A DNA stretch of 64,000 nt from an uncultured Acidobacteriota bacterium. GTDB lineage: Bacteria > Acidobacteriota > Terriglobia > Terriglobales > Acidobacteriaceae. Under the pieces are notes generated by a model that worked only from the letters and a program-made list of their open reading frames with translations, did not search any database and was not told where the DNA came from. The stretch is taken from the NCBI GenBank assembly GCA_903873705.1, contig CAIQPK010000041.1, positions 1 to 64,000 of the forward strand, read 5' to 3'. Position numbers and translations under genes: made by a program. Numbering within the stretch: the first letter of the stretch is position 1; every line of letters starts with the position of its first letter. This document shows, piece by piece, positions 15,281 through 24,743 of this stretch.

Positions 15281-15355
15281 TCCTGAGTAGCTCAATGGCA
15301 GAGCATTCGGCTGTTAACCGAAGGGTTGTAGGTTCGAGTCCTACCTCAGGAGCCA
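15281..15355 (+). tRNA. tRNA-Asn (anticodon GTT)
   Basis: A complete cloverleaf. Acceptor arms TCCTGAG and CTCAGGA pair perfectly, the anticodon loop reads CTGTTAA (anticodon GTT), the T-loop contains GGTTCGAGTCC, and a genomic CCA end is encoded (15353-15355). The gene is immediately followed by a tyrosine integrase gene oriented toward it, the usual sign of an integration site at the tRNA 3' end. Confidence 0.97.
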
Positions 15356-15368
15356 TAAAATCAACAAC

Positions 15369-16502
15369 TTAGTTCGCGCTGCGCTCTGACTGCGCTCCCT
15401 TTGCTTGAAACGCGAGCTGTGCGACCTTGACTCCCGCCGTAGTCATCTCATCCGTTACCACATCGCCGTAAATGTTCATCGTCGTTCGGATGTCCGCGTG
15501 ACGCATCAACTTCTGCTGCACTGCTACCGCTGTGCCCACAGCATCAAGCCATGAGCGGTAGGTGTGGCGAAAGGTGTGTGTCCCGAGGTGGCCGAGGTTG
15601 GCGGCCTTTGCGGCGCGTTGAAGTTCGCTGCAAACGCCGGTGTAGGAATAGGGAAGCCGGCCGAGCTTTAGCGGACTAGCGAAAACCCAATCCGTCCCGT
15701 CCCCAAACTTCGCGTCCCGCTTCCAGGTCTTGAGGCGCTCCAGCATCTCCGAGGTGAGCACGAGGACCCTAGCCGAGCCCTCCGTCTTCACATCGGCGAC
15801 CCGCTGATTGACGATGCCGCGTTGGACGTTCAACCGCGACCCCAACCAATCGACGTCGTCCCATTGCAACGCGAGAGCTTCACTGATGCGCAGCCCGAGC
15901 GATACCGAAAGAAGTGCGAGCGTAGACACGGGCTCGCGCAACTCTTGCAGTAGCGCCTGGAACTGCTCAACCGTTAGGCTTCGCGGTTTCCGTACCCGCT
16001 TAGTCGCTCCCACATTTCGTACGAGAGACATCGGGTTTCGTGCGACTTCGAGTAAGCCCGCCCACATCGCAAAATCTACAAGGCCGTGCATGAGTGATCG
16101 CACATGCGTTTTGGACTTTGGCGATAAGGGCAGCTCTCGGAGCCACAACTCGACGGGGCGCGGTTGGACATCCTGAATCAGGGTGTCGCCCCACTTCGGG
16201 CCGATGTGATTGTCCAAGAAAGAACGATAGACCCGCGCCGTTGTGTGGCGTGTGGGCATCCGCTCCGCTTGGTAACGCGCAATCACAGTCGTCACCGTGT
16301 CCCCTATCTTGGCTTCCGGTTGTTGCGGTTGAAGGCCGTCTACTGCTTTCCATGCGGCGGCCTTGGTGGGAAATTCTTGTTTCGTTCCGATTCGCTTCGA
16401 CCGGCGAATCGCCCCGTCGTACCAGAGATAATTCCAGGTCCGTCGCCGTTTGTCGTAGCGCACCGAGCCCGTTGTGTGACGATGTTGTCGCTGTGCCTTC
16501 AT
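15369..16502 (-). CDS. Tyrosine-type site-specific integrase (phage family)
   Basis: A 377-residue integrase. The N-terminal AP2-like arm-binding region (about residues 10-60) is followed by a SAM-like core-binding domain (70-170) and the catalytic domain (185-360). The catalytic residues are present: Arg in SLGLRISEAL, His-x-x-Arg in HTFRH, the second His in RHADIRT, and the nucleophile Tyr in NIYGD. It ends 13 bases from the tRNA-Asn CCA end. Its ATG overlaps the excisionase stop (ATGA), so the two are coupled. It would insert the island into tRNA-Asn. Confidence 0.92.
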   Translation of the reverse strand: MKAQRQHRHTTGSVRYDKRRRTWNYLWYDGAIRRSKRIGTKQEFPTKAAAWKAVDGLQPQQPEAKIGDTVTTVIARYQAERMPTRHTTARVYRSFLDNHIGPKWGDTLIQDVQPRPVELWLRELPLSPKSKTHVRSLMHGLVDFAMWAGLLEVARNPMSLVRNVGATKRVRKPRSLTVEQFQALLQELREPVSTLALLSVSLGLRISEALALQWDDVDWLGSRLNVQRGIVNQRVADVKTEGSARVLVLTSEMLERLKTWKRDAKFGDGTDWVFASPLKLGRLPYSYTGVCSELQRAAKAANLGHLGTHTFRHTYRSWLDAVGTAVAVQQKLMRHADIRTTMNIYGDVVTDEMTTAGVKVAQLAFQAKGAQSERSAN

Positions 16503-16699
16503 TGCTGCCTCCCGTCAGCAAGTCCAGCGGATGACGGGCAAAGGATAGCATCCAGCTCTGTGCGTAAGAAGCGCCACACATGCCTTTTCACGCCCGAGAG
16601 TCTGTGCGCGGGTACGCGGCCCGTGCGCGCCCATTGGAGCAACGTGCGCGGCTTCACCTTTAGATAAGCGGCCGCCTCCGAACAATTGAGCCATTCCAT
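16499..16699 (-). CDS. Excisionase-like helix-turn-helix protein
   Basis: A 66-residue DNA-binding protein with the HTH_17/MerR-type pattern: LNCSEAAAYLKVKPRTLLQWARTGRVPAHRL followed by a WRF turn. Small proteins of this kind act as excisionases or control integrases. It overlaps the integrase gene by 4 bases (ATGA) and lies directly upstream of it, which supports a role in excision. Confidence 0.8.
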   Translation of the reverse strand: MEWLNCSEAAAYLKVKPRTLLQWARTGRVPAHRLSGVKRHVWRFLRTELDAILCPSSAGLADGRQQ

Positions 16700-16986
16700 T
16701 TGTGTCCCCCGTCTCGTTAGGCGACTCCCCTCGCCGATGCAAAACCCACGCTGCTACCCCACCCGCACTTTTCACAGACGCCGTGTGGGGCATTTGTGCG
16801 CCACGGCGGGCCATCCTAGAGCCTCTTTTCGGTGTCTAGCCCGTCCGACAGTCGTCAATGTAAAGGACGCTTGACACAAATCGGGATTTATTTCAATGTG
16901 TGTAAATAAAAGAGTGGCGGAGGGCTTTTAGGGGTTTTTTTTCAACATTTTACCCCGCCCCCGCCCACCATTGCACCCATTGTGAC
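16700..16986. other. Island intergenic region, likely promoter for xis-int
   Basis: There is no convincing gene in these 287 bases. The part from 16855 to 16960 is markedly A+T-rich with a run of eight T, unlike its surroundings. I expect the minus-strand promoter of the excisionase-integrase pair here but cannot place its boxes. Confidence 0.5.
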
Positions 16987-23193: not shown

Positions 23194-23225
23194 GGTTGAA
23201 CTTATCCACAAAGGAAGCCCCACCC

Positions 23226-23453
23226 ATGAAAGTTCTCAGCATCATTCCGAGCACCACTGTCCTCGCGCACGACACCGAGAGCCTCGCCTACGCTTGGCAA
23301 CAGTTCGGCGCGCCTTTCCCCATCTCCCCGGTCGCCCGATTCGTGATCGACTTCACCTTAACCCCGGCCGAGCGCCGGCGGCTCCCCAAGGCTCTTCGCG
23401 AGCTGCTAGTCGAAGAAGCGGGGGAAGTGGAGGTCGCCGATGGCACCAGATAA
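23226..23453 (+). CDS. Unknown small island protein, control module
   Basis: A 75-residue protein from ATG 23226, with AAGGAAG upstream. It ends with an acidic stretch (LLVEEAGEVEVAD) and overlaps the following helix-turn-helix gene by 14 bases, so the two are translationally linked. No known domain is recognised. The arrangement (small protein plus small DNA-binding protein, divergent from the structural genes, beside iterated sites) suggests a switch or replication-control module. Confidence 0.5.
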   Translation: MKVLSIIPSTTVLAHDTESLAYAWQQFGAPFPISPVARFVIDFTLTPAERRRLPKALRELLVEEAGEVEVADGTR

Positions 23454-23652
23454 GCCGGCGCTCACAGTCGCCGAGGCCGCCGAGGCCGCCGATTTGACGG
23501 GCTTCGGCCGCGACACGATTTCGAGGATGTTCGAGCGCGAGCTCGGCGTCCTCGTCCTAGACCGGCCCGAGGCGATACACAAGCGCAGTTATCGTAGTAT
23601 TCGCATACTGCGGCCGGTTTACGAGCGTGTGTCGCGACGGCTTGCGGTGTAG
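23440..23652 (+). CDS. Small helix-turn-helix DNA-binding protein
   Basis: 70 residues. GGAGG lies 6 bases before the ATG, inside the previous gene. LTVAEAAEAADLTGFGRDTISRMF followed by HKRSYRSIRILRPVYERV has the shape of HTH_17/MerR-type excisionase or control proteins. It overlaps the preceding gene and is the likely ligand of the 13-bp repeats at 23105-23143. Confidence 0.65.
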   Translation: MAPDKPALTVAEAAEAADLTGFGRDTISRMFERELGVLVLDRPEAIHKRSYRSIRILRPVYERVSRRLAV

Positions 23653-23726
23653 TTTGGGTTTCATGCCGGGCTTGCGGCGTATAGTGTTTCAATCACTTAC
23701 ATTCCACCGCCCAAGAGAGTGCCGGC

Positions 23727-24743
23727 ATGAACGAGTTTGACCAGCGCATACGAGAGCACCAAATGTGGACCGAGATGAGGAAGCTCGGACCTGCAATCGA
23801 CGGCGCTGCCGCAGTCCCGGACCTGACGCCCCAAGCTGTCTTGGGTTTGGAGCGCTTGAGGGCAATTCTCGCCTACATCGGAAAACGGATTGCCGCTGCC
23901 GACCCTCTAGTTACTCCTCCGGGGCCGCTGGATGCGATTGTCCCGGTTTTGGCGGCGGCACAAAACGAGCTGACTGCGTTTATTTCAGACAAGGACCCCG
24001 CTCACATTGTCACAGCTAACGTGACCGCAGACGGGGCATTGATGGCAATAGCGCAGGTTCCAGGAGCCTACAGTCCCGAGGAGCTGGGCGTATTAGTTTC
24101 CAAGACGACCGGCTACAGAAAAGTCGTATCTGATGCTCTCACGGACGCCCAGCAAAGGCTTCGCGGCTTCAAGGACGAGTCGGATAAGATGCTTGCCGCG
24201 CTCGGCGCGAAATCAGAAGCGGACCTCAACCTTCTCTCAGCTAGGGCAGAAGCTCTTCAGGGGAGCCTCAACGCAATTTCGTCGAGCGTTGACGCCGAAC
24301 GCCAGAGGCTCGCGAATATCGCGAGCGAGCAACAGGGCCAATTTTCGGCTTCGCAGGAAGCGCGCAGTACTCAGTTCAACGAGAACTTTCGTGTTTCCAC
24401 TGAAAGATTTACGCAGCTTGTCGCGGATTATCAGAAACAGTTTTCAGACGCCCAAGACGCTCGCGGCAAAGAGAATACGGCTGCCGAATTAGTCCGCCAA
24501 ACAAAATATAACGAGACGGTCGCTGGGGACTGCTGTGTGAACGTTCCCTCCGCTCCATCGCAACGGGCCGTGACGGCGGCGCGGTTACGATTACCGCGTA
24601 TCACGCGTATCAATGGAACGGCGCTTGCGCCTGCATCCCTTGATTTGTCGCGACGAAATGGCATCAGCCGAACGTCGGTCCAGAACCTGAAACGCAGCCT
24701 GCGAAGACCTCTCTCTGACGGAATCCTGATTTTAAGAATCTAG
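23727..24743 (+). pseudogene. Coiled-coil protein, probably truncated by a rearrangement
   Basis: Residues 1 to about 266 form a coherent protein: an N-terminal helical domain with LTPQAVLGLERLRAILAYIGKR and VPGAYSPEELGVLVSKTTGYRK, then a long coiled coil rich in Gln, Glu and Ala. After NETVA (about base 24525) the sequence changes abruptly to Cys-, Arg- and Pro-rich residues with no structure and different codon use. It looks as if the original 3' part was lost and replaced by unrelated DNA. I do not recognise a function; similar proteins that end in a membrane anchor may exist. A promoter-like TATAGT lies about 45 bases upstream of the ATG. Confidence 0.55.

What the first reader, a model, noticed from the sequence alone, without database searches (positions are those of the whole stretch)
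15281..24743. Phage-derived tRNA-Asn island with capsid and tape-measure genes but no packaging genes
The island has integrase and excisionase, an HK97-type capsid protein, a tape-measure protein, small unknown proteins and a divergent control module. Between 15.37 and 24.7 kb there is no terminase, portal, protease, tail tube or lysis gene. It is either a degraded prophage or a compact satellite that makes its own capsid and borrows the rest from a helper. The main structural genes are intact reading frames with good start signals, which argues against simple decay.
Basis: partly seen in the sequence, partly recalled or inferred. Interest (0 to 1): 0.7.

Follow-up and report, generated by a model that had tools for sequence, protein, structure and literature searches.

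The report
Phage satellite with capsid and tape-measure
A stretch of DNA beside a tRNA gene in a soil bacterium belongs to a family of small phage parasites that carry their own shell protein and tail-length ruler but no DNA-packing machinery, so they probably build hybrid particles with parts taken from a larger phage.

Summary
In detail: beside tRNA-Asn lie integrase, excisionase, an intact HK97-type capsid gene and an intact tape-measure (TMP) gene, without terminase, portal or connector genes. It is not a lone prophage remnant. I collected 21 related elements (19 from genomes of the same family, 2 viral contigs): 0 of 21 match terminase, portal or tail proteins of the related phages; 16 carry a capsid gene, 17 a TMP, 12 both. 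Fourteen are bounded by tRNA direct repeats; of these, 9 of 10 with a capsid gene measure 9.0-10.0 kb, the four without 13.4-19.7 kb. Ten satellite capsids separate from six phage capsids, whereas TMPs are interleaved with phage TMPs. Genes g7 and g8 mark the satellites. A ~95-bp noncoding element in the window is shared with phages, which carry it directly after their HNH gene: a candidate packaging or origin site. Best reading: a satellite family that substitutes the helper's capsid protein and TMP. The window copy lacks attR and may be stranded. New variant of a known kind.

The parts
15281..15355 (+). tRNA-Asn (GTT), integration site (attL side)
   Evidence: ARAGORN; similarity to 10 congeneric genomes ends within about 25 bp of its 3' end
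15369..16502 (-). tyrosine integrase
   Evidence: 64% identical to the integrase of island L145 at tRNA-Lys, 86% over 50 aa to a contig-edge fragment in L135
16499..16699 (-). excisionase-like HTH protein
   Evidence: HTH_17 and TIGR01764; 71% identical in L135
16873..16969 (-). conserved noncoding element, candidate helper-packaging (cos) or replication-origin site
   Evidence: with the window left out of the model E 4.9e-21; a model from four phage copies alone finds it at E 3.3e-14
16987..17403 (-). g3: protein of the same profile family as g4 and the phage Prim-Pol C-terminus
   Evidence: profile family; 41% to a protein of L145
17558..17986 (-). g4: second protein of that family
   Evidence: 44% to residues 557-604 of the L025 Prim-Pol protein
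18059..20476 (-). tape-measure protein, 805 aa (open frame begins at 20587)
   Evidence: dN/dS about 0.14-0.23 against five relatives
20647..21891 (-). HK97-fold major capsid protein homologue, 414 aa from ATG (open frame begins TTG 21903)
22093..22398 (-). g7: satellite hallmark gene upstream of capsid or TMP (longer frame begins 22551)
   Evidence: profile match in 20 of 21 elements and in none of 14 phage-type loci; start from RBS and alignment
22499..23038 (-). g8: satellite hallmark gene seen only in capsid-bearing elements
   Evidence: 13 of 16 capsid-positive and 0 of 5 capsid-negative elements; none of 14 phage-type loci
23178..23453 (+). g9: small divergently transcribed protein
   Evidence: related frames in L145, L147, L143, L156
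23440..23652 (+). g9b: small protein also carried by full phages; weak HTH match in two relatives
23727..24520 (+). g10: accessory gene, 3' end probably truncated (open frame runs to 24743)
   Evidence: codon pattern lost from about 24.5 kb; no relative among the loci searched
24801..25136 (+). 3' fragment of an AcrB-type efflux pump gene, flank of the eroded right border
   Evidence: PF00873 E 1.9e-6 to profile positions 973-1020 of 1021, below the cut-off; similar stretch in congeners

Best explanation
The island is a member, probably now stranded, of an Acidobacteriaceae family of tRNA-integrating phage satellites. Shown here: the elements carry integrase, a shared noncoding element, g7 and one or both of two virion genes (capsid protein, TMP), and 0 of 21 match terminase, portal, connector, tail-tube or hub of the related phages. 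Inferred: on infection by a related phage (contigs of about 40 kb), the satellite excises and replicates. The helper's terminase packs its DNA by recognising the shared element. The satellite capsid protein, alone or mixed with the helper's, redirects head assembly to a small shell that fits about 10 kb. The satellite TMP replaces the helper TMP inside tails built from helper tube, hub and tip, giving a chimeric particle. Satellites without a capsid gene would use helper heads and are larger. g8 is probably an assembly partner of the capsid, and g7 of the whole structural module.
For: Twenty-one elements, 0 with TerL, portal or ten other phage structural proteins probed; TerL and portal were found in five of five phage or prophage controls; portal and TerL profile matches in the island genomes lie elsewhere. 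Fourteen with att repeats of 21-92 bp at tRNA genes. Size follows capsid presence: 9 of 10 capsid-positive at 9.0-10.0 kb, 0 of 4 capsid-negative; exact Mann-Whitney p 0.004; Fisher p 0.005 with a limit of 10.1 kb set after seeing the data; relatedness not corrected. Capsids of 10 satellites versus 6 phages separate at support 100/99. TMPs are interleaved, one phage group rejected at AU p 1.5e-61. TMP lengths of satellites (804-819, 718-729, one 670) fall in or near the two phage classes (802-806, 724-726). dN/dS about 0.14-0.23 in ten pairs. The noncoding element is in 20 of 21 elements at E<=1e-3 (with each locus left out in turn, 23 of 23 copies were found again at E 1.7e-6 or better) and directly follows the HNH gene in the four phage loci that hold that region. 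Precedents read in passages: TMP replacement in PLE satellites (PMC12987554) and a satellite capsid homologue that redirects head size in SaPIbov5 (PMC8569155).
Against: No particle, excision or transfer has been observed. The window copy has no attR. G000 has no helper prophage that I could find. Homology probes miss divergent genes: in the G055 prophage they found TerL, portal, connector, head completion and hub but not tube, neck, DUF2460 or tip, so distant tail genes in satellites could be missed; the G238 element has a 661-aa protein with a weak minor-tail match over 60 residues (E 2.6e-8). The shared element could be an origin: it often lies near a primase-family gene, and on one phage contig (L133/L128) the stretch held after it leads to no terminase. 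One capsid-bearing element (G359) is 15.6 kb, and its capsid frame lacks most of the N-terminal region. With the G055 prophage capsid and other long branches included, phage capsids were one side in 0% of bootstrap trees, although supported branches force only one change. Capsid and TMP are not both present in 9 of 21 elements.
Confidence: 0.7

Rival explanations
1. Degraded prophage: an internal deletion removed packaging and tail genes of a full phage at tRNA-Asn, leaving capsid and TMP by chance.
For: The window copy lacks attR and its right end is eroded; full phages with the same TMP and g9b exist; a degraded relative exists in Terriglobus albidus.
Against: 21 elements with the same missing set, 14 with att repeats at eight kinds of tRNA gene; g7 and g8, not found in 14 phage-type loci; intact 805-aa and 414-aa frames with dN/dS about 0.14-0.23; capsid lineage apart from six phages.
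Confidence: 0.1
2. Anti-phage decoy island: the capsid and TMP homologues poison assembly of infecting phages and the element is not itself packaged.
For: Interference with tail assembly is a known defence (PMC11364771 passages; Rta in PMC12987554 passages). Fifteen of 17 island genomes have no TerL match at 1e-30 to the related phages, although 11 of the 17 have a portal match elsewhere, so prophages of other kinds are present.
Against: Noncoding element shared with phages in 20 of 21 elements including the window; sizes near 10 kb in 9 of 10 capsid-bearing elements; integrase and att repeats; contigs of the same design in a viral collection.
Confidence: 0.12
3. Multimer satellite without small heads: the DNA is packed as concatemers into helper-size heads and the capsid homologue only helps compatibility. 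Sizes near one quarter, one third and one half of 40 kb would then reflect unit counts.
For: Sizes 9-10, 13.4 and 18.6-19.7 kb; some satellites package several copies of their DNA in one particle (PMC11389934, passage).
Against: It does not explain why the capsid genes form their own lineage nor why capsid presence goes with the 10-kb size; 15.6 kb does not fit.
Confidence: 0.2

Closest known systems
Capsid-forming PICIs (cfPICIs)
   Same: Integrated satellites with their own HK97-type capsid gene that need helper tails; a sampling of them is said to encode putative tmp genes (PMC12987554, Extended Data Fig. 10 legend, read as a passage).
   Different: cfPICIs are described as encoding capsid, protease, portal, connectors, both terminase subunits and HNH (PMC10690885, passage). 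Here portal, connector and TerL matches are absent in 21 of 21 and protease is present in 2 of 21.
Vibrio PLE satellites (PLE11)
   Same: Encode an alternative TMP that enters chimeric tails (PMC12987554, passages).
   Different: PLE11 virions hold the helper's capsid proteins, and PLE11 adds a tail chaperone and hub; here a capsid gene accompanies TMP in 12 of 17 TMP-bearing elements and no homologue of the phages' hub was found. Homology to PLE proteins was not tested.
cos-type SaPI with Ccm (SaPIbov5)
   Same: Satellite-encoded capsid-protein homologue used together with helper head proteins (PMC8569155, passages).
   Different: Different hosts; no TMP gene of the satellite's own is mentioned in the passages read; whether the capsid protein here builds pentamers only is unknown.
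PICMIs
   Same: Small satellites that depend on a helper for their virion (PMC10803314, start of the abstract seen in the search listing).
   Different: [quoted passage not shown] these elements carry capsid and TMP genes.

Membership tests
phage satellite (general) | integrated element with integrase, lacking a complete virion gene set | tested here: met
   integrase profile match in 20 of 21 elements, 0 of 21 with TerL or portal; att repeats in 14
phage satellite (general) | mobilised and packaged with help of another phage | not testable with these tools
   only indirect: noncoding element shared with phages
cfPICI | encodes terminase, portal and head-tail connectors | tested here: not met
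   0 of 21 elements; portal profile matches elsewhere in the genomes only
cfPICI | own major capsid protein | tested here: met
   16 of 21 elements including the window; PF05065 over cut-off
PLE | satellite-encoded TMP | tested here: met
   17 of 21 elements including the window
PLE | sequence relatedness to PLE genes | not tested
   no PLE sequence was fetched
cos-type SaPI with Ccm | capsid-protein homologue that takes pentamer positions and shrinks the head | not testable with these tools
   needs particles; size association only
cos-type SaPI with Ccm | cos site shared with the helper | tested here: inconclusive
   a shared element lies after the HNH gene in four phage loci and ahead of TerL in three of them, but an origin is not excluded
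intact prophage | head, packaging and tail modules | tested here: not met
   (lysis genes were not searched separately)

The most novel reading that the evidence does not exclude
A satellite family whose virion strategy is a two-cassette swap. A satellite-specific capsid protein sets a head small enough for about 10 kb, and an interchangeable TMP, repeatedly exchanged with helper lineages and held near the helper's length classes, re-keys the helper tail. Loss of the capsid cassette lets the element grow to 13-20 kb in helper heads. The rest of the particle, including the packaging motor and portal, is borrowed through one shared cis element.
Probability: 0.43. Interest if true: 0.85.

Novelty: new variant of a known kind. 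Interest (0 to 1): 0.72.

Why it matters
Satellite-encoded TMPs that enter virions were described in 2026 for Vibrio PLEs, and a satellite capsid homologue for a staphylococcal island. A family combining both without a packaging motor, in Acidobacteriota, would show that head size and tail identity can be swapped as separate cassettes. It also gives a natural series (capsid plus TMP, capsid only, TMP only) with which the link between capsid gene and genome size can be tested directly. A search for papers holding both 'phage satellite' and 'Acidobacteriota' found none; one for 'satellite', 'acidobacteria' and 'prophage' listed ten, whose titles and abstract starts name no such family.

Tried and rejected
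Rejected: g9b as a satellite-only marker (my first reading; the other ends of the phage contigs carry it). Rejected: a plain deletion remnant. Led nowhere: search for attR in the window with exact and gapped matching; empty-site comparison in congeners, because the tRNA-Asn flank is variable; AlphaFold models of g7 and g8 (mean pLDDT 63.7 and 57.4) and Foldseek with g7, no match with E<=0.001 in two libraries; TMP against PDB sequences, only two matches at E 0.69 and 0.91, and against GenBank phages, no match; capsid against GenBank phages, 248 records, all under 60% identity; ten proteins against PADLOC, one methyltransferase and one borderline ZorA match to g10 at E 0.00098 taken as chance coiled coil. 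Contig ends as evidence for cos: the scan found only the contig already known.

Corrected on checking: I first wrote that 14 of 17 island genomes lack a TerL match; it is 15 of 17. I first wrote that the element leads into the packaging operon in four phage loci; that holds for three, not for L133. For this I lowered the main confidence from 0.72 to 0.70 and the novel case from 0.45 to 0.43. One search was added to probe the tRNA-Asn flanks.

Rows dropped: the capsid tree leaves out 9 of the 25 rows (long or distant branches, among them the G055 prophage and the divergent capsids of L026, L141, L147, L150, L153). The TMP tree leaves out 6 of the 25 rows. Of 25 TMP-positive genomes, 17 were examined by locus: 16 hold satellites, one (G055) a full prophage; G015, G188, G193, G201, G206, G319, G331 and G386 were not examined, nor a second weak TMP match in G269 on a contig that also has TerL and portal matches. 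The T. albidus remnant is not among the 21, nor are L183 and L184, found by the element model with a capsid match.
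Full report
OBSERVATION. The window is contig C41 of genome G000. The island starts at tRNA-Asn (15281-15355). Reading away from it: integrase, excisionase, a noncoding element, g3, g4, tape-measure protein (TMP), capsid, g7 and g8, all on the minus strand, then g9, g9b and g10 on the plus strand. The capsid is a clear HK97-fold protein. The TMP has no Pfam or PHROG family but is about 52-65% identical over its whole length to the gene of phage contigs L017, L020 and L021; in L017 it is directly followed by DUF2460 and the baseplate-hub gene. 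No terminase, portal or connector of these phages is present.

IS IT A REMNANT? A search of 150 genomes of the family with capsid and with TMP, then of 398 with a TMP profile (25 positive), led to loci that I fetched and annotated. Of the 25 TMP-positive genomes I examined 17: one is a full prophage (G055), 16 hold compact elements (17 elements, as G371 has two). With four more, found through g9b in viral contigs (L129, L135) and through the noncoding element (G157, G332), the set is 21. In this set: integrase 20, g7 20, g8 13, capsid 16, TMP 17, both 12, protease 2, HNH of the phage type 1; TerL, portal, connector, head completion, tail tube, neck, DUF2460, hub and tip 0 of 21. TerL and portal probes lit up in five of five controls; the other probes did so in part, because some stretches are short and because the G055 prophage is distant (tube, neck, DUF2460 and tip were missed there). 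A portal profile over 17 island genomes found matches in 11, none of them inside an island. A TerL profile over 398 genomes found 34 positive genomes; of the 17 island genomes only G019 and G269 matched, on other contigs, and G000 had none. At tRNA-Asn itself, 0 of 10 congeneric stretches have TerL, portal, capsid or TMP. One result on the other side: a 661-aa protein of the G238 element has a weak PHROG minor-tail match over 60 residues.

PRECISE ELEMENTS. Fourteen of the 21 have direct repeats of 21-92 bp between the tRNA and the far end, at tRNA-Ser, Asp, Leu, Val, Thr, Lys, Pro and Arg genes. The ten with a capsid gene measure 9.01, 9.37, 9.78, 9.85, 9.87, 9.87, 9.93, 9.94, 10.02 and 15.65 kb. 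The four without measure 13.41, 18.59, 18.74 and 19.73 kb (exact Mann-Whitney p 0.004; shared ancestry is not corrected). A capsid profile found no capsid frame in those four. The related phage contigs in IMG/VR are 39.5, 42.4 and 42.9 kb long.

TWO GENES, TWO HISTORIES. In a tree of 16 capsids, six phage capsids form one side of a branch against ten satellite capsids with support 100/99. In the larger tree of 25, which includes long-branched rows and the G055 prophage, the split is not clean. TMPs behave otherwise: in a tree of 19 rows satellites and phages are interleaved, at least five changes are forced by supported branches, and a single phage group is rejected (AU p 1.5e-61). Labels: L017, L018, L020, L021, L120, L126 and L128 lie on contigs with further phage structural genes; L124 was labelled phage from its capsid-to-TMP spacing and a protease match. 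TMP lengths fall into two classes in phages (802-806 and 724-726; the distant G055 prophage has 761) and satellites fall in or near them (804-819 and 718-729, one of 670). dN/dS is about 0.14-0.23 in the ten pairs computed, with synonymous changes near saturation in most.

SATELLITE GENES. Profiles of g7 and g8 match many elements and none of the 14 phage-type loci in the same search, which cover parts of their contigs. g8 occurs in 13 of 16 capsid-bearing and 0 of 5 capsid-less elements, so it probably serves the capsid; g7 stands upstream of capsid or TMP and occurs in both groups. Predicted models of both are low in confidence but show a similar order of helices and strands. g3 and g4 belong to a profile family with the Prim-Pol proteins, to whose C-terminus g4 aligns.

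THE SHARED ELEMENT. A word comparison between islands and the region upstream of phage TerL led to a conserved noncoding element of about 100 bp. In the four phage loci that hold the region (L017, L020, L133, L170) it lies between the HNH gene and a p127-type gene; in three of them this leads on to TerL, while on the fourth contig the stretch held after it has no TerL match and TerL lies elsewhere. A model made from those four copies alone finds the window copy at E 3.3e-14; leaving the window out of the full model gives E 4.9e-21. Controls: no match with E below 0.6 in 199 kb of host DNA or in the window outside the island, none below 1 in eight shuffled islands. In 396 genomes a sequence-only model found 54 places in 43 genomes, one of them in G000, inside the island. 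Sixteen of these places, not studied before, were fetched as a forward test: 14 have an integrase match in the stretch, 11 a primase-family match, 4 a capsid match, and 0 of 16 TerL, portal or TMP. The element is absent from L144 and weak in L135. Its place in phages suggests cos, which is my preference (HNH proteins next to cos are recalled knowledge); its frequent nearness to a primase-family gene leaves an origin open.

MECHANISM AND PRECEDENT. Passages of PMC12987554 say that PLE11 puts its own TMP into otherwise largely helper-made tails and that transduction falls roughly 99.9% without it; [quoted passage not shown] and that putative tmp genes occur in other satellites including cfPICIs. 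Passages of PMC8569155 say that SaPIbov5 Ccm, a capsid-protein homologue, occupies pentamers and redirects a prolate head to a small isometric one. A passage of PMC10690885 gives the gene set of cfPICIs, which these elements do not meet. The family here therefore seems to work like a combination of the SaPIbov5 head strategy and the PLE tail strategy, but is filed as a separate variant.

THE WINDOW COPY. No attR is found, the g10 frame loses its coding pattern near 24.5 kb and a 3' fragment of an AcrB-type gene follows. The island core is intact, but this copy may not be able to excise. No resident helper was found in G000.

Noticed in passing
L164:13224-18074 and L165:9507-14717: Two capsid-less satellites (G284, G371) carry very large RHS-repeat proteins (1616 and 1736 aa) as cargo.
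   Followed up: no
L134:2789-4336, L135:4709-6256: A capsid-bearing satellite contig in IMG/VR carries an N6/N4 DNA methylase next to g9b.
   Followed up: no
window:14400-14523: A short stretch upstream of the island recurs at ten places on other contigs of G000 at 74-88% identity, like a dispersed repeat.
   Followed up: no
L017:17219-21265; window:20647-21903: The related full phages carry tail genes (DUF2460, BR0599, Gp84, Phage-tail_3) that I recall as typical of the Rhodobacter gene transfer agent, and the nearest solved capsids by sequence are entries 6tba and 6tb9 (Rcc01687), which I recall as that agent.
   Followed up: partly
L050-L059: The DNA downstream of tRNA-Asn shares little between 10 congeneric genomes, apart from one similar pair (G140, G170), and 4 of 10 have an integrase match there: an integration hotspot.
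   Followed up: partly
L150 and L165 (genome G371, contig C2): One genome carries two satellites of the family, a 10.0-kb one with capsid and TMP and an 18.6-kb one with TMP only; their TMPs form a supported pair.
   Followed up: partly
L142:11974-14397: An 807-aa protein without any family match lies between capsid and TMP in the 15.6-kb element of G359.
   Followed up: partly
L172-L187: Several loci found by the noncoding element have integrase and primase-family matches but no capsid, TMP or terminase match, which suggests a wider satellite class.
   Followed up: partly
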